From assembly GCA_018715445.1 (NCBI GenBank), contig DVLP01000350.1:1-7212 (forward strand): DNA of 7,212 nt, given 5' to 3'. How positions within the stretch are numbered: position 1 is the first letter of the stretch; each line of letters begins with the position of its first letter. Shown one piece after another: positions 1 through 7,212 of this stretch. The notes beneath the pieces were generated by a model. That model saw nothing but the letters and a program-made list of their open reading frames with translations. It had not been told where the DNA came from and did no database searches. A program made the translations under genes and the position numbers. The stretch is from Candidatus Avipropionibacterium avicola (lineage in GTDB: Bacteria > Actinomycetota > Actinomycetes > Propionibacteriales > Propionibacteriaceae).

Positions 1-879
1 GCGATGGTCCTTGTACTCCGTGCTGGCGTAGCGGGGCAGGACCGCCTGGGACAGGTTCGCCAGTCGTACGGCGGCCTGGGGGTCGAGCTCGGCGGCACAT
101 TCCACCCGAACCACCCCGACCCACGGGGCACCGTCGGCCGACGGCAACCGAAGGTACCAACTGAGCCGATCCCACGAGGTCCCCATGGCAAAGATCGGCG
201 TCCGCTCACCGGCGCCGAGCCGGGCGATGACTGCATGCAACGCCGGTGGCAGATACGTCGTCCGGTGCGACTTGATGTAGCCGATGGTGTCGGCCAGCGA
301 GGTCCGTCCCCGCAGCGGGCCGTCCACCACGACCAGGGAGTCCTCGACGTCGTGGTCGCGCAGGCCGTTGCGGGCCTCGGCCGCGGCGATGATCTCGAGA
401 TCGGTGAGGTGTTGCTGCAGGGCACCGGAGAGCAGCAGGGCGGGGTTCTCCTCGCCCCGGTCGCCGGTGTGGTGGGCCCGGTAGGTCCCGGCCGTGGTCG
501 TCACGTCCTCGGCGCCGGCGACGGTGGTGAACAGCCCACGTCGGGTCAGCGCACTGAGCAGATGGGCCCCTCGCTGACAGCTGCACACGACACCCGAGCC
601 GTACGAGGCGCACAGGCCCATCCCGGTCTGGGTGCCGAGCACCTCACCGGTGTCGGGGTCGAGCAGCGGCTCCTCGATCCACACCCGGGCATCGACCCGG
701 CGGATGCCGTCGACGAACAGGATGGCGGCCGGCCGGGGGACCGCGGTGGCCGGGATCGGGGCCCAACGGGAGGCCGGGACCTCCACCTCCGGGTCGATCC
801 GGGCCGTGGAGGACGCCGTCTCGGCAGCGTCGACGCTCGAGCCGTACGCCGGGTCCCAGGTGTCGACGTGGAACCTCAC
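1..879 (-). CDS. nurA: NurA-family 5'-3' nuclease, partial (C-terminus beyond window)
   Basis: The frame is open through the left edge with no stop, giving 293 residues. NurA is a metal-dependent nuclease with an RNase H-like fold that pairs with the HerA hexamer to resect DNA ends. Visible from the GTG start: N-terminal WDPAYGSS (about 8-15); the first motif FVDGIRR with D57, matching the catalytic aspartate of the family; a second acidic motif VVVDGPLRG with D186; GYIKSH with K203; VRVECA with E260; and the late motif STEYKDHR (286-293), which in NurA proteins lies near the C-terminus, so roughly 30-50 residues are probably missing. GTG at 879 is preferred: it overlaps the sbcC stop as GTGA and sits 4 nt from the Shine-Dalgarno GGGAGG (884-889). 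The ATG at 882 leaves only 1 nt. Its place after sbcC in an operon begun by herA supports the call. Odd point: three clustered cysteines (C90, C99, C101). Family call is strong from motifs; activity is inferred. Confidence 0.88.
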   Translation of the reverse strand, partial: MRFHVDTWDPAYGSSVDAAETASSTARIDPEVEVPASRWAPIPATAVPRPAAILFVDGIRRVDARVWIEEPLLDPDTGEVLGTQTGMGLCASYGSGVVCSCQRGAHLLSALTRRGLFTTVAGAEDVTTTAGTYRAHHTGDRGEENPALLLSGALQQHLTDLEIIAAAEARNGLRDHDVEDSLVVVDGPLRGRTSLADTIGYIKSHRTTYLPPALHAVIARLGAGERTPIFAMGTSWDRLSWYLRLPSADGAPWVGVVRVECAAELDPQAAVRLANLSQAVLPRYASTEYKDHR

Positions 880-3797
880 CATGCCTCCCGGGTGACCGAG
901 GAGGTACGGCTGTCGCGCCGGACCTGGAAGCGGACCGGGACCCGTTCGGCGAGTGCCTGCACGTGGGTGACCACCCCGACCGTCCGGTCGCCGCTGGCGA
1001 GGTTCTCCAAGGTGGCGGCCACGGTGTCCAAGGACTCCGGGTCAAGCGTGCCGAAGCCTTCGTCGAGGAACATCGACTCCAGCCGGACCGCTCCGGCCAT
1101 CCCGGCGAGCTGATCGGCCAGCGCCAGCGCGAGGGCGAGGCTGGCCTGGAAGGTCTCGCCGCCGGAGAGGGTCCGCACCGAGCGGACCGAGTCGGCGTCG
1201 CTGTGGTCCACGACCGCGAACTCGCCCTTGTCGTGGGTGAGGTCGAACTGGTCGTTGGAGAGGCGGCGCAGGGTCTCGGAGGCGGTGGCCACCAAGGAGT
1301 CCAGGGCCGTGTCGGCCAGCCACTGCGGGAACCGGTTGGAGCGCAGCATCTTGCGCAGCTCCTCGGCCACCTGCTGCTCCTGCTTCGCCGTGGCGATCTC
1401 GGCCTCGAGGTGGCTGCGGCGCTCGAGGCGTTCCTGCATCCGTGCCACCTCGGCCCGGGCACGCTCGGTGTGGACGGCCAGCAGTCGGGCGAGGTCCTCG
1501 TCGGCGGCGATGGCCTCCACCTCGATCACCGTGGCCACCCGGGCTCGCAGCTCGGCGGTGAGCCGGTCGGCCTCGGCCACTGCGGTGGCGAGGTCGTCGG
1601 CCAGTGTGGCGACCAGGTCGGCCACGGTGCTGCGCTGTGTCTCGGCCCAGGCGAGCAGGTCGTGCCAGGCCATGGGCAGGTCGTCGACCTCCAGGGGCGG
1701 GGGCCCGAGGACGGCGACACGGTCGCGTTGCTGGTTCAGCACGCTCCGGGCCTCGCGGATGGCTTCGGTGGCCTCGCCCAACTCCCGTTCGGCCTCCTGC
1801 TGGGCCTGTTCGGCCGCCGAGACCCGAACCTCGGCGTCGTCACGGGCCGTGGCCAGCTCGACGGCCCGGGCGAGCAGCCCGTCCAGGTCGGCGAACGGTG
1901 GCGCGGTCGTCAGCGAGTCGTTGAGGCCGGCGAACCGCTTCTGCAAGGCCTCGTGGTGCGCGAGGGCGCGTGCGTGGGAGCTGCCTGCCTCGGAGTCGAC
2001 GGTCCGGGCCCGGTCCAGGGTCTCGTCGGCTGCGTGGTGCGCGGTCCGGGCTGCCGTGACGGCATCGGTCCGCTCCCGGTGGGCGGTGGCGGCGGCCTCG
2101 ATCTGCTGGTCCAGCTCGTGGCGGCGGGTGGCGAGCCAGTCCGCGGCCCGGTCGGGTCGTTCCGGGAGGTCGGCGACGTCGTCGCGGAGCCGGGACCACT
2201 GGCTGTCGATCGCGTCGCCGAGATGCTGGATCCGCAGCTGGAGGGCCCGCAGGTCTGAATCGGCCCGGTTGGCCGCCTCCCGAGCCCGGGTCTCGTCGTC
2301 GCTGCTGCGTTCGAGATCGTCGCGCGCCCGGTCGAGGGCGGGGTCGGCGATCGGCGGCGGCAGGGTCGTCACCTGCTGGGTGCAGACCGGACAGGCGTGG
2401 CCGACCTCGAGGTGGGGGCGCAGCGCGGCGGCCTCGGCCTGTGCCCGGGCTCGGTCCATCTGCTGCTCGGCCTGCTCCCGCTGCTTCGCAGCTGCGGCGG
2501 CCAGCGTCCGCGCCTCGTCAAGTCGCTGCTCGTGGTCGGTGAGGTCGCGGTCGAGCTCAGCGCGCGTCTCGATCTGTCCGTCGAGATGGATGAGCTGGCG
2601 CTGGACCCGCTGCAGGTCGTCATGTCGGGCCTGCAGGGACTGCTGATGCTGCTGGGACTCGGCCTGATGCTCGAGGGCGAGCTGCAACTGTTCGTCGGCC
2701 GAGCGCTCCTGCTGCTTGGCGACCTCGAGGGCCGCGGAGGACTCGGTACGAGACTGGTCGCCGGCCGTCACCTGCTCGAGCGCTGCCGCCAGCTCCTCCT
2801 CGACCCGGGTCCGTTCCTGGTACAGCTCGCGCCACCGGGTCACCACGTCCCGGCTCGGCTCGGTGGCGCCGGCCCGTACCGCCTCCTGGTACTGCGTGCT
2901 GGCATCGCGGCGCTGCTGCTCGGCCCGGGTGCGGGCGGTCTCGGCGTCGCGGAGACGTCGGTGGAGGCCGGTCACGTCGTCGGGGATGCTGAGCCCGTCG
3001 AGCAGTCCCAGGTGTGCACGGGACTGACCGAGCTGACCCTCGAGCTCGGCCACGCCGGTCCGCGCCAAGGTGAGCGCAGGGGACCGGTCCGCCACCTCGG
3101 CCTCCACCTGCTCGAGGTCGTGCCGGCGGCCGGTGAGCCGCTTCACCTCGTCCGTGGTGGCGTCGCTGAGCTCGCCGACCTGTCCGGCCAGCAGGTCAAC
3201 CGTGTGGCGTCGCGCCTCGGCCCGGGCGCCGGCGCGGCGACCGATGCCTTCGTACTGGTCGGCGCCGAGCAGCGCGAGCAGGATCTTCTGGCGATCGACC
3301 GCCGGTGCGGTCAGGAAGCGGGCGAACTGGCCCTGCGGCAGCACCACGCACTGGCAGAAGTTCTCATAGCTCAGCCCGAGCAGTGACTCGACGCACTCGC
3401 GCAACTCCTTGATCTCGCCGGCCAGCACCTCGCTGGTGTCGACATCGGCAGCGGTCGCGGTCGGATCGTGGAACCGGACCAGGCTGACATTGCGCTGCTG
3501 GGGGGTGGCCCCGACGCGTCGCACCTCACGGGCCACCTGGTAGCGCTCGCCAGCGACGTCGAAGACCAGGCTGACGGTGCAGCGGTTGGTCGTCGGGGCG
3601 AGCGCGTCGGCGATGGCGTCGCGTCGGCCCCACCGGGGCACGGTGCCGTACAGGGCGAAGACGATCGCGTCGAGCACCGTCGACTTGCCCGAACCGGTCG
3701 GGCCGACCAGGGCGAAGTAGTCGGCCTCGCCGAAGTCGAGGGTGGCCGGCTCCCGGAAGGAGGCGAAGCCGTGGAGGCTGAGCTGGACGGGGCGCAT
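876..3797 (-). CDS. sbcC: SbcC/Rad50 ATPase subunit of the SbcCD (Mre11-Rad50) nuclease
   Basis: 973 residues, close to the usual SbcC length of about 1000. SbcC is an ABC-type SMC-like ATPase that clamps DNA and gates the SbcD nuclease at double-strand ends and hairpins. Seen in order: N-terminal lobe starting MRPVQLSLHGFASF; Walker A GPTGSGKST (32-40); Q-loop region CVVLPQGQFARFL (about 150-162); a long Glu/Arg/Gln/Ala-rich coiled coil (about 180-460); the zinc hook HACPVC (468-472) with the CxxC that dimerises two Rad50 arms; a returning coiled coil (about 485-820); ABC signature LSGGE (877-881); Walker B and D-loop ending MFLDEGFGTLD (about 909-919); and an H-loop histidine in VVTH (H945). 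All ATPase motifs are intact. The ATG start follows the sbcD stop by 6 nt, with GAGGA of the Shine-Dalgarno overlapping that stop. The stop overlaps the nurA start. Nothing looks broken. Confidence 0.97.
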   Translation of the reverse strand: MRPVQLSLHGFASFREPATLDFGEADYFALVGPTGSGKSTVLDAIVFALYGTVPRWGRRDAIADALAPTTNRCTVSLVFDVAGERYQVAREVRRVGATPQQRNVSLVRFHDPTATAADVDTSEVLAGEIKELRECVESLLGLSYENFCQCVVLPQGQFARFLTAPAVDRQKILLALLGADQYEGIGRRAGARAEARRHTVDLLAGQVGELSDATTDEVKRLTGRRHDLEQVEAEVADRSPALTLARTGVAELEGQLGQSRAHLGLLDGLSIPDDVTGLHRRLRDAETARTRAEQQRRDASTQYQEAVRAGATEPSRDVVTRWRELYQERTRVEEELAAALEQVTAGDQSRTESSAALEVAKQQERSADEQLQLALEHQAESQQHQQSLQARHDDLQRVQRQLIHLDGQIETRAELDRDLTDHEQRLDEARTLAAAAAKQREQAEQQMDRARAQAEAAALRPHLEVGHACPVCTQQVTTLPPPIADPALDRARDDLERSSDDETRAREAANRADSDLRALQLRIQHLGDAIDSQWSRLRDDVADLPERPDRAADWLATRRHELDQQIEAAATAHRERTDAVTAARTAHHAADETLDRARTVDSEAGSSHARALAHHEALQKRFAGLNDSLTTAPPFADLDGLLARAVELATARDDAEVRVSAAEQAQQEAERELGEATEAIREARSVLNQQRDRVAVLGPPPLEVDDLPMAWHDLLAWAETQRSTVADLVATLADDLATAVAEADRLTAELRARVATVIEVEAIAADEDLARLLAVHTERARAEVARMQERLERRSHLEAEIATAKQEQQVAEELRKMLRSNRFPQWLADTALDSLVATASETLRRLSNDQFDLTHDKGEFAVVDHSDADSVRSVRTLSGGETFQASLALALALADQLAGMAGAVRLESMFLDEGFGTLDPESLDTVAATLENLASGDRTVGVVTHVQALAERVPVRFQVRRDSRTSSVTREAW
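884..889 (-). promoter_or_regulatory. Shine-Dalgarno of nurA, decides GTG over ATG start
   Basis: Minus-strand GGGAGG lies inside the end of sbcC. It is 4 nt from GTG 879 but only 1 nt from ATG 882, so the GTG start, with its GTGA overlap of the sbcC stop, is favoured. Both starts are in the same frame and differ by one residue. Confidence 0.6.
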
Positions 3798-3800
3798 GGG

Positions 3801-3805
3801 TCCTC
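3801..3805 (-). promoter_or_regulatory. Shine-Dalgarno of sbcC overlapping the sbcD stop
   Basis: Minus-strand GAGGA is formed partly from the sbcD stop codon TGA and ends 3 nt before the sbcC ATG. A ribosome terminating on sbcD covers the site, which suggests coupled synthesis of the two subunits. Confidence 0.55.
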
Positions 3806-4958
3806 AGGTGGTCGTCTCGTCGAGGAGCTGGTCGAACAGCGCGTTCAGACGTGGATCGTCGACACCGTTCTCGGCGCAGTAGTCGGAGAACAGTTCGGCG
3901 GGGGAGCGCTGCGGGCGATCGACCGCGACGCCGGCCCGGGCCGCGGTGGCGGCGTGGTCGGGGTGGATCCGTACCTCGAGGGTGTGGGGCAATGCCTCGA
4001 CGATCTCGTCGCGCAGACCGGCCCTGCCGGGCTCGGTGACCACGACGCGCAGCAGGTCATCGCCGTACCGGTCGGGATCGGCGATCAGCTCGGCCACGGT
4101 CCCGGTGACGGTCCGCAACCGTCGCCCGGAGGTGATCGGCAGGTCGGTGACCTTGGCCGGGACGCCCGGAGCGACCTCGACCAGGCAGACGCCCGGGGTG
4201 TAGTCCTGCTCGCCGAAGTCGACCGCGATCGGTGAGCCGCTGTAGTGGACGGGGCAGGCGGCCGGGATGTGTTGGCGCCGATGGAGGTGGCCCAGGGCGA
4301 CGTAGTGGAGGTCCGTCCCGAAGATCGAGGCCGGGACGTGGTACTCGAAGATCGACTGGGCCTGACGCTCCCCACCGCCGAACTGGCCGCCGGTGCAGGT
4401 CAGGTGGGCCATCACGATGCGGACGGCGTCCGGCTCGAAGCCCGTCGTCAGCTCCTGGACCAGGTCGCGCAGCAGCTGGTCGTAGTGCCCGACGTTCTCG
4501 GCCGGGGTGTTGGTCATGATCTGCGCCGCGCGGACCGCATAGCGCTGGGAGAGGAACGGCAGCAGTGCGATCTGGCAGCGCTCCCCGGTGGAACCGACGG
4601 TGAAGCTGTGGACCCCGCCACGGTGTGGTTCGCGCGCCTGGCCGCGGACGTGGATGCCGGCCTGGGCCATCAGGGGCTGGTACGCCTCGAACATCGCCGG
4701 GTTGTCGTGGTTGCCGGCGATCGCCACGACCTCGATCCCGCGCGAGGCCAGCGCCATCAGGGTCCGTACCACCAGGCGCTGGGCAGCGGGGGTCGGGCTC
4801 GAGGTGTCGTAGAGGTCGCCGGCCACCAGGACCGCGTCGACCTCATGGTTGATCGCCAGCGTGACGATCTCCTTCAGCACCGCCGTCTGCTCCTCCAGGC
4901 GGTCACGGCCCTTCAACGTCTTGCCGACGTGCCAGTCGGCGGTGTGCAGGAACCTCAT
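3804..4958 (-). CDS. sbcD: SbcD/Mre11 exonuclease-endonuclease subunit
   Basis: 384 residues, a normal SbcD length. It is the Mn-dependent nuclease partner of SbcC, processing double-strand ends, hairpins and protein-blocked ends. The calcineurin-like metallophosphoesterase motifs are all present: TADWH (D8, H10), AGDLYD (D48), AGNHDN (N83, H84, D85), VMAHLTC (H185) and LGHLHRR (H224, H226). These are the two-metal ligands plus the catalytic histidine. GSPIAVDFGE (241-250) is the segment after the catalytic core typical of SbcD. The C-terminal part carries the capping region and the stretch that in Mre11/SbcD binds the Rad50 coiled-coil base. Start: the ATG at 4956-4958 gives the family N-terminus MRFLHTADWH and overlaps the herA stop as ATGA. 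An upstream GTG at 4988 would add ten unrelated residues and run inside herA. Its Shine-Dalgarno is weak (GGGCAG), consistent with reinitiation from herA translation. Confidence 0.97.
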   Translation of the reverse strand: MRFLHTADWHVGKTLKGRDRLEEQTAVLKEIVTLAINHEVDAVLVAGDLYDTSSPTPAAQRLVVRTLMALASRGIEVVAIAGNHDNPAMFEAYQPLMAQAGIHVRGQAREPHRGGVHSFTVGSTGERCQIALLPFLSQRYAVRAAQIMTNTPAENVGHYDQLLRDLVQELTTGFEPDAVRIVMAHLTCTGGQFGGGERQAQSIFEYHVPASIFGTDLHYVALGHLHRRQHIPAACPVHYSGSPIAVDFGEQDYTPGVCLVEVAPGVPAKVTDLPITSGRRLRTVTGTVAELIADPDRYGDDLLRVVVTEPGRAGLRDEIVEALPHTLEVRIHPDHAATAARAGVAVDRPQRSPAELFSDYCAENGVDDPRLNALFDQLLDETTT

Positions 4959-6718
4959 CGCTGGCTGCCCGGGTCGTCGAAGCTCCACTCGTCGTCCTGG
5001 CCGTCCAGGTCCAGGGCGGTGAAGGCGGTCCTGGACGGGTCCCGGTCACCGTGGTCGGAGTCAGGGGCCACCTCGGACAGTCGTGTCGCCCAGGCCGGGA
5101 ACGGGAACTCCACGGCGAGCGGGACGGGGATCTCGGGCTGGGAGACGAACATCGTGCCCGGTTTGGCCAGGGTGGCGCGATGGCGTTGGGAGGCCGGGAG
5201 GAATCGGTACTCCGGCCGGGCGGCCTCGGCGGCGTCGAGGCGTCCCACCACCCGGATCGCCGAGTTGGAGATGATCCGACGCTCCACCTCGGACGCGGTC
5301 TGCTGGGCCCCGATGAGGATGATGCCCAGGGAGCGGCCCCGCTCGGCGATGTCCAGCAGCACCTCCTTGATGGGGGAGGAACCGTCGCGGGGTGCGTACT
5401 TGTTCAGCTCGTCGAGCATGGTGAACAGCAAGCTGCCCGGGCCGCTGCGTTCCTTGCGCTCGGTCTCGCTGGCCAGCACGACGCCCACCACGAAGCGCTG
5501 GGCACGGTCGGGCAGGTTGTGCAGGTCGACCACGGTGACCTGATGGTCCTCGGTGCTCACCGAACGACGGCGCCGGTCCCCGGCCAGGTCACCGCGCAGG
5601 ATCGGGCCGAGCGCCTTCTGGGAGGAACGCAGCCGCCGCAGGAAGGCGTTGATGGTGCCCATCCCGGTGGCGGGCCCGGCCCAGGTGGCGCGGGTGGCGT
5701 CCTCGGTGACGAGCCTGCTGATCAGCTCGATCAGCTCGGCCCAGGTCCGGCAGATGGTGCCGTCGATCGTGACGGCGCCGTCGTCACCACTGGGACGGGC
5801 CTGGCGCCGCAACTGGGCGCTGACCTGGTGCACGACCATCGTGTACTGGTTGCGGTCATCCTCGGCGTCGGCGAAGACGTACGGCAGGAGCTCACGCTCG
5901 CAGAGCTCGGCCAGACTCCACCAGAAGGCGTCGACGCCGCTGGTCCGTCCGGTGACGTGGGGTCGTCCGACGGTGTCGCCGGGCAGGGGTGGCGCGTAGA
6001 AGCCGACCGAGGCGAACGGTTCGCAGGCCAGTCCGAGGTCGCGGTACTGCGCCCGCAGCCGGTCGTCGACCCTGACATTGGCCCGGTCGAGGAAGAGCAG
6101 GTCCTCCCCCTTGACCGAGAACACCAGGGCCTTCGCGTTGAGAGAGCGCGGTCCGAGGGCGCCCGAGGTGAACAGTGAGTGCAGCAGGAACAGGGCGAAG
6201 CTGGTCTTGGTCGCCACCCCCGAGACACCCGAGATCGACACGTGGGCACCGCGCGTCCCGTCCAGGAACTCCCGATTGACCACGATCGGCTCGCCGTCGC
6301 GACCCGTCCCCACCGGGACCCGGTGCTCCATGGTGTCGAAGTACAGGGCCGACTCACGACCGCTCCCACTGGCGCGCTCGACCGCTTCCCCCGGCCGTGG
6401 CGGGATGTAGCACTCCGGCTCGACCCGGGTGGTGGCGATCTCGGCGATCTCCTGGGTCTCGGCCGGCAGTACCCCATCGGCGATCAGGAAGACGTCGGAA
6501 CCGAAGCTGGCCCCTTCGTGGCGGGCCACCACCTGGGTCACCACCCCCGAGGTGGTCACCGGGCCGAGCCCGGGCACCTCGCGGCAGGTCGTCACCACGT
6601 CGTCCAGTTGCAGGTAGTGATCGGGTCGTACGGCCACGTGGAAGGTCAACGGCGTCGAGTCCTCGGTGCCGGCCACCATGCCGACCCCGACGGGCTGGGC
6701 ATCCACTCGCTGGTCCAT
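4955..6718 (-). CDS. herA: HerA-family DNA translocase ATPase (HAS barrel plus FtsK/HerA RecA-like domain)
   Basis: 587 residues. HerA proteins form hexameric rings that pump double-stranded DNA and drive NurA in end resection. Seen: an N-terminal beta-rich region fitting a HAS barrel (about 25-105, from FHVAVRP to YIPPRPG); a P-loop region SISGVSGVATKTS (161-173); strand KALVFSVKGEDLLFLD (196-211); a long alpha-rich insert (about 215-390); VTVVDLHNLP (394-403); Walker B LLFTMLDELNKYAP (430-442; D436, E437); the polar sensor stretch IGAQQTA (469-475); and SNSAIRVVGRLD (484-495), the HerA-type motif with R489 and R493 as arginine-finger candidates. The C-terminal tail is acidic and ends near DDEWSFDD. 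Odd: the P-loop has TKT where GKT/S is expected. Start: ATG 6718 has AAGGAG (6723-6728) 4 nt upstream. The frame stays open upstream but that part is non-conserved and runs into rRNA promoter DNA. First gene of the operon. Family call is strong; naming it herA rather than a HerA-like paralogue is slightly less certain. Confidence 0.88.
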   Translation of the reverse strand: MDQRVDAQPVGVGMVAGTEDSTPLTFHVAVRPDHYLQLDDVVTTCREVPGLGPVTTSGVVTQVVARHEGASFGSDVFLIADGVLPAETQEIAEIATTRVEPECYIPPRPGEAVERASGSGRESALYFDTMEHRVPVGTGRDGEPIVVNREFLDGTRGAHVSISGVSGVATKTSFALFLLHSLFTSGALGPRSLNAKALVFSVKGEDLLFLDRANVRVDDRLRAQYRDLGLACEPFASVGFYAPPLPGDTVGRPHVTGRTSGVDAFWWSLAELCERELLPYVFADAEDDRNQYTMVVHQVSAQLRRQARPSGDDGAVTIDGTICRTWAELIELISRLVTEDATRATWAGPATGMGTINAFLRRLRSSQKALGPILRGDLAGDRRRRSVSTEDHQVTVVDLHNLPDRAQRFVVGVVLASETERKERSGPGSLLFTMLDELNKYAPRDGSSPIKEVLLDIAERGRSLGIILIGAQQTASEVERRIISNSAIRVVGRLDAAEAARPEYRFLPASQRHRATLAKPGTMFVSQPEIPVPLAVEFPFPAWATRLSEVAPDSDHGDRDPSRTAFTALDLDGQDDEWSFDDPGSQR

Positions 6719-6760: not shown

Positions 6761-6784
6761 GGGATCACCGTAATCGGTGACCCC
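6761..6784. repeat. 24-nt inverted repeat upstream of herA (operator candidate)
   Basis: Arms GGGATCACCG (6761-6770) and CGGTGACCCC (6775-6784) flank TAAT. Nine of ten pairs match; the exception is A6764 against C6781. It lies 43 nt upstream of the herA start and about 44 nt left of the first rightward promoter, so a protein bound here could act on either side. The A+T centre in a G+C arm pair resembles a dimeric-repressor site. The family of any regulator is not recognisable. Confidence 0.45.
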
Positions 6785-6826
6785 GACAGCCCGGTCCGGG
6801 GGACCACGAGCCACCCGTGACCCCGA
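6777..6826. repeat. 10-bp direct repeat, 40 bp apart
   Basis: GTGACCCCGA occurs at 6777-6786 and again at 6817-6826, exactly 40 bp start to start and so close to four helical turns. The second copy abuts the -35 box of the first rrn promoter. The shorter core GACCCCG also occurs at 6730-6736. It may be a pair of activator sites on one DNA face, or chance in GC-rich sequence. Confidence 0.3.
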
Positions 6827-7084: not shown

Positions 7085-7113
7085 TTGACCGGGTTGGTTT
7101 TTCTCTGTAATGT
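7085..7113 (+). promoter_or_regulatory. rrn promoter candidate P3 (TTGACC-17-TAATGT)
   Basis: TTGACC (7085-7090), a 17-nt spacer and TAATGT (7108-7113) form a third rightward sigma70-type promoter about 160 nt downstream of P2. It sits in a locally T-rich stretch just before the conserved rRNA leader. Start site would be near 7120. Tandem promoters are usual for rRNA operons. Confidence 0.6.
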
Positions 7114-7173
7114 TGGTCTGGTTGCCCCGGGCTGAGGATCGTTGGTGGTTCTTGGTGTGGTGTGTGATCGAAG

Positions 7174-7212
7174 TTTGAGAACTCAACAGTGTGCCGAAAG
7201 TCAATGCCAAGC
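7174..7212 (+). other. Conserved actinobacterial pre-16S rRNA leader element (partial)
   Basis: The stretch containing TTTGAGAACTCAACAGTGTG and then GTCAATGCCAA matches, from memory, the leader found a short way upstream of 16S rRNA genes in many high-G+C Gram-positive bacteria. That leader region is involved in antitermination and RNase processing of the rRNA precursor. It contains a short self-complementary TTGAG-AA-CTCAA (7175-7186). The mature 16S gene is not in the window and should start beyond 7212 on the plus strand. Confidence 0.8.

What the first reader, a model, noticed from the sequence alone, without database searches (positions are those of the whole stretch)
1..6718. Complete archaeal-type HerA-Mre11-Rad50-NurA resection operon in an apparent actinobacterium
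Four consecutive minus-strand genes are HerA, SbcD/Mre11, SbcC/Rad50 and NurA by clear motifs. In archaea these four genes cluster and cooperate in double-strand-end resection. Bacteria normally have SbcCD without HerA-NurA and resect with RecBCD, AddAB or AdnAB. A bacterial locus fusing both pairs in one transcription unit suggests a dedicated end-resection machine, as an alternative or backup to the standard helicase-nuclease. The first three genes are intact in the window and nurA is intact as far as visible.
Basis: partly seen in the sequence, partly recalled or inferred. Interest (0 to 1): 0.72.

Follow-up and report, generated by a model that had tools for sequence, protein, structure and literature searches.

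The report
Damage-linked HerA–SbcCD–NurA repair operon
An actinobacterium carries four tightly packed genes of the HerA-NurA and SbcCD families behind a sequence that resembles a known DNA-damage promoter, so the proteins are predicted to be made together and would likely trim broken DNA ends for repair, beside the standard machines that the same genome also encodes.

Summary
The window (one contig of a Propionibacteriaceae genome) encodes herA, sbcD, sbcC and nurA head to tail on the minus strand, joined by 4- and 7-bp overlaps and a 6-bp gap; nurA is cut by the contig end. Catalytic motifs are present. "Archaeal-type" is wrong for the proteins: among solved structures HerA and NurA match the Deinococcus pair, SbcC and SbcD match bacterial SbcCD. 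The linkage is not chance: among 197 genomes of the class the same 14 have HerA and NurA, SbcD beside them in all 14; 64 of 80 named loci show the full order. It does not replace the standard resectors: the host also has AdnAB and RecC. New here is a PafBC/RecA-NDp-type damage promoter motif upstream of herA (window 6789-6767): 18 of 66 relatives carry it against 5 of 693 other upstream regions. In the host and a congener the motif also precedes recA, uvrA/B/C, radA, priA and recC. Where herA lies apart, sbcD often has its own (5 of 12 loci, 0 of 57 others). Most likely: a DNA-damage-induced end-resection set. Bacterial HerA-NurA is already in print, and HerA with SbcCD in Oceanithermus; I found no description of this operon's regulation.

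The parts
6767..6789 (-). PafBC / RecA-NDp-like DNA-damage promoter motif CTGTCGGGG-N8-TACGGT (7 of 9 plus TANNNT); 48 bp lie between it and the herA start
   Evidence: consensus tTGTCRgtg-8nt-TannnT from PMC5656591 (passage)
4955..6718 (-). herA: HerA-type ATPase/translocase, Deinococcus subtype; Walker A lysine/threonine, Walker B D-E and the further catalytic D conserved with drHerA
3804..4958 (-). sbcD (Mre11 family nuclease, bacterial type); its ATG overlaps the herA stop by 4 bp
876..3797 (-). sbcC (Rad50 family ATPase) with Walker A, CPVC zinc hook, LSGGE signature and Walker B, read from the sequence
1..882 (-). nurA, 294 codons visible; the C-terminal 31 codons match on contig C403 (8815-8907); D, K and R equivalent to drNurA D53, K201, R309 present

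Best explanation
The window encodes one tightly packed herA-sbcD-sbcC-nurA cluster whose promoter motif predicts induction by DNA damage and whose products would likely act together to process and resect broken DNA ends. Shown by sequence: the four genes, their tight packing, the motif, and their co-occurrence in relatives. Inferred: after damage, PafBC (activated by single-stranded DNA in mycobacteria) switches the operon on with recA, uvr genes, radA and recC; SbcCD clips blocked, hairpin or protein-bound ends; the HerA hexamer then pumps duplex into the NurA dimer, which degrades the 5' strand and leaves a 3' tail for RecA. Because the same genome keeps AdnAB and a RecBCD-type RecC, the operon would be an added path for ends that those enzymes handle poorly.
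For: Family and fold assignment. Operon packing. HerA and NurA in exactly the same 14 of 197 class genomes (own genome included), SbcD on the same contig and strand in all 14 (Fisher p 1e-21, not corrected for kinship). Order and strand the same in 64 of 80 named loci, and all four genes in 17 of 20 sampled loci of more distant members of the phylum. Motif (7 or more of 9 plus TANNNT) upstream of herA in 18 of 66 loci, 9 of 30 genera or groups, against 5 of 693 other ORFs of the fetched loci (p 2e-16); upstream of sbcC 1 of 70, of nurA 2 of 79. At the same score approximate dinucleotide shuffles give 0.4 of 71 and the reverse strand 0 of 71, observed 20 of 71 with duplicates and window. sbcD has its own motif in 5 of 12 loci where herA is displaced, 0 of 57 where it is not. 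Whole-genome pattern: 9 sites in the host (reversed control 0) and 16 in a congener (control 1), next to recA, uvrB and a DEDD exonuclease (host) and recA, uvrA, uvrC, radA, priA, recC, dnaB, dnaX (congener). PafB-like protein in the host (cut by a contig end), PafB-PafC pair in the congener. Pairwise distances of HerA, SbcD and NurA correlate at 0.89 to 0.94 in 62 loci. Enzymology of D. radiodurans HerA-NurA (PMC9960219, abstract, passages and sections 12 and 14).
Against: No expression, interaction or activity was tested. The motif is absent at this score from 48 of 66 loci, including 5 of 5 Streptomyces and 3 of 3 Actinoplanes, and from 25 of the 28 distant herA loci with enough upstream sequence; the window site has two mismatches. 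The genome-wide pattern was written after the window site was seen, so the window's own hit there is by construction. Some motif sites in the two genomes precede genes with no clear repair role (ABC transporters, rhomboid, ubiE, ffh). herA is separable from sbcDC-nurA, and one genome (L057's draft) has sbcDC-nurA without a HerA at E<=1e-20. In D. radiodurans, deleting nurA-herA raised resistance to high UV and mitomycin doses about 10-fold (PMC9960219 section 14), the opposite of a simple repair phenotype. The fold list also holds TdpB, part of an anti-phage system as I recall.
Confidence: 0.7

Rival explanations
1. Anti-phage or anti-plasmid defence: HerA-NurA with an SbcC-type ATPase recognises and shreds foreign DNA ends, like TdpAB or Lamassu-type systems.
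For: NurA model matches TdpB (8wfd, E=1.2e-5); SbcC matches LmuB (5.4e-28) and mad3 (1.5e-26), HerA matches mad8 (5.3e-9) and HerA defence models weakly; patchy distribution, 14 of 197 in the class. Of 88 flanking or inserted proteins some match PADLOC models at 1e-10 (111 models in all): kinases in 3, mad3 in 3, RecD-like helicases seen in L024 and L040.
Against: DNA-damage promoter motif shared with recA, uvrB and others. Much stronger matches to repair proteins. The PADLOC models that match are generic kinase, helicase and ABC-ATPase ones (in the one mad3 case looked at, one flanking protein matches mad3 and mad8 in two halves), no family recurs in more than 4 of 88; but the 86 flanking proteins were hand-picked from 148 printed of 189, and there was no control set. 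With a NurA query: no match in 50,697 phage records, 4 of 72,556 plasmid records.
Confidence: 0.15
2. A weaker form of the best reading: SbcCD and HerA-NurA share a promoter and need, yet act on different substrates without hand-off. (Overlaps the best explanation, which asks for joint action.)
For: herA lies apart from sbcD in 12 loci while sbcD-sbcC-nurA stay together; nurA sits at either end of the cluster.
Against: The gene set persists through rearrangement and distances correlate strongly; in archaea the two pairs are reported to cooperate (PMC8708640, passages).
Confidence: 0.35
3. Recent transfer of an archaeal HerA-Mre11-Rad50-NurA operon.
For: Same four functions in one cluster; the same order herA-mre11-rad50-nurA as I recall for Sulfolobus.
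Against: The best models or solved structures for the four proteins are bacterial; other members of the phylum have nurA-herA-sbcD-sbcC (9 of 20); the HerA tree is spread over Actinomycetota and puts the window with L004 and, weakly, other Propionibacteriaceae. No archaeal sequence was in that tree.
Confidence: 0.03

Closest known systems
Deinococcus radiodurans NurA-HerA (PDB 7f6d; PMC9960219)
   Same: HerA aligned over 540 residues, E=3.6e-137, same unusual Walker A loop ATKT; NurA profile E=1.5e-31 and catalytic D, K, R conserved
   Different: That paper treats nurA/herA as an operon of two; the word SbcC does not occur in its text. Here SbcCD lies between herA and nurA, behind a PafBC-type motif.
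Oceanithermus profundus hepA (herA) with sbcD-sbcC downstream (PMC5448004, passage)
   Same: Bacterial cluster of HerA with SbcCD, which its authors liken to the archaeal system
   Different: Other phylum; the passage does not say where nurA is. In 9 of 20 distant Actinomycetota loci nurA comes first, in the window last
Archaeal herA-mre11-rad50-nurA operon (PMC2288612, PMC8708640, passages)
   Same: Four functions clustered, co-transcribed in Sulfolobus acidocaldarius, co-induced by UV
   Different: Archaeal subfamilies of the four proteins; the window proteins are of bacterial subtypes
Bacterial SbcCD (6s6v, 4lty; E. coli by recall)
   Same: SbcC and SbcD are of this type
   Different: No HerA-NurA partner, by recall
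TdpAB
   Same: TdpB shares the NurA-like fold
   Different: Weak match; phosphorothioation genes were not looked for; known to me by recall as an anti-phage system

Membership tests
NurA nuclease (PF09376, bacterial type) | RNase H-like fold with catalytic Asp, Lys, Arg as drNurA D53, K201, R309 | tested here: met
   profile match E=1.5e-31; those residues align (chain numbering 20 higher, my count) with invariant D57, K217, R307 of A1; fold match; all three present in the window protein
NurA nuclease (PF09376, bacterial type) | window protein itself over the Pfam cut-off | tested here: not met
   0 families at E<=1 for the truncated protein; full-length relative P0001 14.2 bits, cut-off 21; 15 of 20 relatives match at E<=0.1, best 1.2e-5
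HerA translocase | RecA-like ATPase with drHerA K175/T176, D220, D487/E488, and the N-terminal domain | tested here: met
   540-residue alignment to drHerA from its residue 14 on, motifs aligned; but no Pfam family at E<=1
SbcCD | SbcD metallophosphoesterase and C-terminal domain; SbcC head domains plus CxxC zinc hook | tested here: met
   hook CPVC read from the sequence; SbcC is under the cut-off of TIGR00618
Archaeal HerA-Mre11-Rad50-NurA operon | archaeal subfamilies of the proteins | tested here: not met
   bacterial models or structures score higher
PafBC (RecA-NDp) regulon | promoter motif tTGTCRgtg-N8-TannnT upstream, PafBC in the genome | tested here: met
   window 7 of 9 plus TANNNT, enriched in relatives; PafB-like protein at a contig end of the host, PafB-PafC in the congener; PafC of the host not seen
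PafBC (RecA-NDp) regulon | PafBC-dependent induction by DNA damage | not testable with these tools
   needs expression data
LexA/SOS regulon | SOS-box-like palindrome upstream of herA | tested here: not met
   0 matches of a simple GAAC-N4-GTTC-type pattern in 62 upstream regions including the window, 0.45 expected from shuffles
Anti-phage defence system (TdpAB, Lamassu, MADS) | better match to those proteins than to repair proteins, and their partner genes nearby | tested here: inconclusive
   repair matches are stronger; flank survey shows only generic models but had no control; partner genes not searched one by one

The most novel reading that the evidence does not exclude
Actinomycetota own a third, PafBC-switched end-resection machine: SbcCD and HerA-NurA form one hand-off complex, a bacterial counterpart of archaeal Mre11-Rad50-HerA-NurA, that takes broken ends which AdnAB and RecBCD cannot process; its archaeal-looking gene order arose inside bacteria by moving nurA from the front to the end of a nurA-herA-sbcD-sbcC cluster.
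Probability: 0.35. Interest if true: 0.72.

Novelty: new variant of a known kind. Interest (0 to 1): 0.52.

Why it matters
Bacterial end resection is usually described as the work of RecBCD, AddAB or AdnAB. HerA of this type is in 71 of 396 sampled genomes of the phylum (HerA alone counted), and in the loci looked at it mostly comes with SbcCD and NurA. A damage-linked HerA-SbcCD-NurA operon would add a path built like the archaeal one and would couple SbcCD to long-range resection. Named carriers such as Kineosporia, Amycolatopsis and Streptomyces strains make it testable.

Tried and rejected
Horizontal gain by the window's genus: considered because 0 of 19 sampled genomes of other genera of the family have HerA and 1 of 19 has an SbcD over the cut-off, and the nearest relatives outside the genus are mostly Streptomyces and kin by identity. 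The HerA tree puts the window with L004 (100/100) and Tessaracoccus (82/61, weak), so vertical descent with many losses fits as well; not claimed.

Replacement of the ordinary SbcCD: 9 of 14 operon-bearing class genomes have no other SbcD over the cut-off, 5 do (G131, G142, G162, G163, G221); this does not differ from the 99 of 183 operon-free genomes with SbcD (Fisher p 0.27). Not claimed.

Replacement of AdnAB: rejected; a pair of PF12705 ORFs 3 to 5 kb apart on one strand is in 15 of 15 operon-bearing genomes (14 of the class sample plus the congener). Helicase domains were checked only in the host. RecC over cut-off in 3 of 15, any match in 4 of 15, the host among both.

SOS control: no SOS-box-like pattern. 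An exact motif search found only 3 Kineosporia sites in 62, so a graded score was then used. The consensus was recalled before the search and found later in PMC5656591; the threshold 7 of 9 was set. The genome-wide pattern (first base C or T, eighth free) was written after the window site was known.

Loci not complete: 9 of 80 show only sbcC-nurA, 7 lack herA nearby. Seven of the 9 begin within 1 kb of the sbcC match and are cut; in L070 and L081 the 713 and 980 bases left of the sbcC match show no sbcD, unexplained. Of the 7, L077 is cut at its edge; the other six genomes were searched: 5 have HerA elsewhere, judged by coordinates about 4 to 11 kb upstream in L054, L013 and L056 (same contig assumed), and L057's draft has none. 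Two of the 64 complete loci, L042 and L055, hold only part of herA. Duplicates L008 and L089-L092 were dropped from the counts; the window is not among the 66. The tree used 35 of 62 named rows (window included) plus 20 others, two on very long branches. The genome searches scored only the best few candidates of each genome (6, 10 and 3).

Defence neighbourhood: 88 proteins scanned (86 hand-picked from the 148 printed of 189 flanking ORFs, plus two inserted in L058); PADLOC and Pfam show no family in more than 4, each table cut at 25 families. One search looked at 10 of them again.
Full report
What is there. The window is contig C304 (7212 bases) of a 3.25-Mb genome, 91% complete. A congener, the named record L004, is an uncultured Propionibacteriaceae bacterium (its 16,663-base contig fits G001:C54 in length and herA position). 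Four minus-strand genes follow each other: herA 6718-4955, sbcD 4958-3804, sbcC 3797-876, nurA 882 to past the edge. herA and sbcD overlap by 4 bp (ATGA), sbcD and sbcC are 6 bp apart, sbcC and nurA overlap by 7 bp. The last 31 codons of nurA match at the end of contig C403. The two contigs share no overlapping ends, but C403 has neighbours seen downstream of nurA in L004: a tRNA in both, a family 2 glycosyltransferase (91% identical) and a MarR-like gene (61%).

Family assignment. HerA matches D. radiodurans HerA along 540 residues (E=3.6e-137); the residues that PMC9960219 names as K175, T176, D220, D487, E488 align with identical residues. The Walker A loop ATKT, which looks degenerate, is the same in drHerA. 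The window NurA has no Pfam or NCBIfam hit by itself; the 20-row profile hits drNurA at 1.5e-31, 15 of 20 relatives match PF09376 at E<=0.1, and the predicted structure of the closest full-length relative P0001 matches drNurA, Thermotoga TM1739 and Sulfolobus NurA. D53, K201 and R309 of drNurA, all needed for nuclease activity, correspond to invariant residues of A1 that are present in the window. SbcD and SbcC match bacterial SbcCD best, archaeal Mre11/Rad50 less (organisms of the PDB entries partly recalled).

More than chance. Among 197 genomes drawn from the class (own genome included), HerA at E<=1e-60 is found in 14 and NurA at E<=1e-3 in the same 14; in all 14 an SbcD lies on the same contig and strand, the whole within about 8 kb. 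Of 80 named loci retrieved with NurA, 64 hold all four genes in the order herA-sbcD-sbcC-nurA on one strand (two with herA cut), 7 lack herA nearby and 9 show only sbcC-nurA, seven of these cut. Over the phylum HerA is in 71 of 396. Of 20 distant loci fetched (of 71 HerA-bearing genomes), 8 have herA-sbcD-sbcC-nurA, 9 have nurA-herA-sbcD-sbcC, 1 is cut after sbcC and 2 show herA only. The set is kept while the order changes. Pairwise protein distances over 62 loci correlate at 0.80 to 0.94 between the four genes.

What the host already has. Paired nuclease-domain ORFs of AdnAB type are in 15 of 15 operon-bearing genomes; in the host one ORF has UvrD helicase plus nuclease domains and the other is cut by the contig end, its nuclease domain being visible. 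RecC is in the host, its congener and one more over the cut-off (3 of 15; 4 of 15 with any match). Only one SbcD, the operon's, is found in the host.

Regulation. In mycobacteria the PafBC factor, activated by single-stranded DNA (PMC11804915, abstract and passages), drives most damage-induced genes; the RecA-independent promoter consensus is tTGTCRgtg-8nt-TannnT (PMC5656591, passage), and the PafBC regulon includes RecBCD, AdnAB, RecA, RuvA and RuvC (PMC8223512, passages). PMC5656591 also says that ClgR recognises this promoter, so the regulator could be ClgR in part. The window has CTGTCGGGG-N8-TACGGT at 6789-6767, with 48 bp to the herA start. Sites scoring 7 or more of 9 with TANNNT lie within 300 bp upstream of herA in 18 of 66 relatives, 9 of 30 genera or groups; upstream of 693 other predicted ORFs of the fetched loci there are 5; upstream of sbcC 1 of 70, of nurA 2 of 79. 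Approximate dinucleotide shuffles give 0.4 of 71 and the reverse strand 0 of 71. Streptomyces (0 of 5) and Actinoplanes (0 of 3) lack it, and of 28 distant herA loci only 3 reach 7. Where herA is more than 300 bp from sbcD or not nearby (12 loci), sbcD has its own site in 5, four of them beginning 31 to 33 bp before its start; in the 57 others none. In the host the pattern YTGTCRGNG-N8-TANNNT, written after the window site was seen, has 9 sites (reversed control 0): recA, uvrB, a DEDD exonuclease, herA, two related genes of DUF222 type, an ABC transporter and a divergent pair of unknowns. In the congener there are 16 sites (control 1): recA, uvrA, uvrC, radA, priA, recC, dnaB, dnaX and herA, a DUF222-type gene, a YhcG-type nuclease, but also ffh, ubiE, rhomboid, an ABC transporter and a resolvase. 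A PafB-like protein lies at a contig end of the host; the congener has PafB next to PafC.

How it most likely works. Shown: genes, order, motif, company. Inferred: co-transcription, damage induction, and the hand-off from SbcCD to HerA-NurA. The enzymology is taken from D. radiodurans (5' strand digested during translocation, 3' tail left; PMC9960219, abstract and passages) and archaea. Against a simple reading: in D. radiodurans loss of nurA-herA raised resistance to high UV and mitomycin doses (section 14).

What is known. PMC8708640 states that NurA and HerA homologues occur in Actinobacteria, Cyanobacteria, Firmicutes and Deinococcus-Thermus but were studied only in D. radiodurans (passage). 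PMC5448004 reports sbcD and sbcC downstream of hepA in Oceanithermus profundus (passage). Searches of the held library for HerA+NurA+SbcCD+Actinobacteria (0 papers), HerA+NurA+bacteria+operon (20 listed), NurA+HerA+Streptomyces, HerA+SbcD+SbcC+NurA, PafBC+HerA (in PMC8223512 the whole word HerA does not occur) and NurA+HerA+Actinobacteria brought up no title or passage, in what I saw, that describes this actinobacterial operon or its promoter; of these papers I read passages or sections of PMC2288612, PMC5448004, PMC8223512, PMC8708640 and PMC9960219 only, the rest as listings. The library lacks most subscription papers, and the paper I sought as the 2004 FtsK-HerA comparative study (id recalled) was not held, so earlier notice cannot be excluded.

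Verdict. Real, conserved, bacterial-type, and probably a DNA-damage-regulated resection set; a new variant of a known kind rather than a new kind.

Noticed in passing
L058:4871-5388: A Phd-type antitoxin and RelE-type toxin pair sits between herA and sbcD in Tessaracoccus bendigoensis, and sbcD there has its own damage-type motif.
   Followed up: partly
L170, L171, L173-L179: In 9 of 20 distant Actinomycetota loci the order is nurA-herA-sbcD-sbcC instead; in the HerA tree this label needs 2 changes, with long branches.
   Followed up: partly
L070 and L081, left of the sbcC match: Two Pseudonocardia loci have sbcC and nurA with no sbcD match in the 713 and 980 bases left of the sbcC match.
   Followed up: no
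window 7100-7212: The right end upstream of herA resembles, from recall, spacer or leader sequence of actinobacterial rRNA operons, which would explain the contig break; Rfam found no rRNA in the window.
   Followed up: no
L103, L111, L120: Members of one family in host and congener (DUF222 by Pfam in L103; L111 and L120 by similarity) carry strong PafBC-type motifs a few bases before their start; role in damage response unknown.
   Followed up: partly
L113:1474-1609: A divergent pair of genes without Pfam match in the host shares an intergenic region with two opposite PafBC-type motifs.
   Followed up: no
L110:1557-2396: A YhcG-type PDDEXK nuclease gene in the congener lies behind a strong PafBC-type motif.
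   Followed up: no
L135, L136, L140, L141, L146, L149, L153: Distant herA loci that score only 6 of 9 share a form close to YTGTCRCAG-N8-TAGGNT, perhaps a lineage variant of the motif.
   Followed up: no
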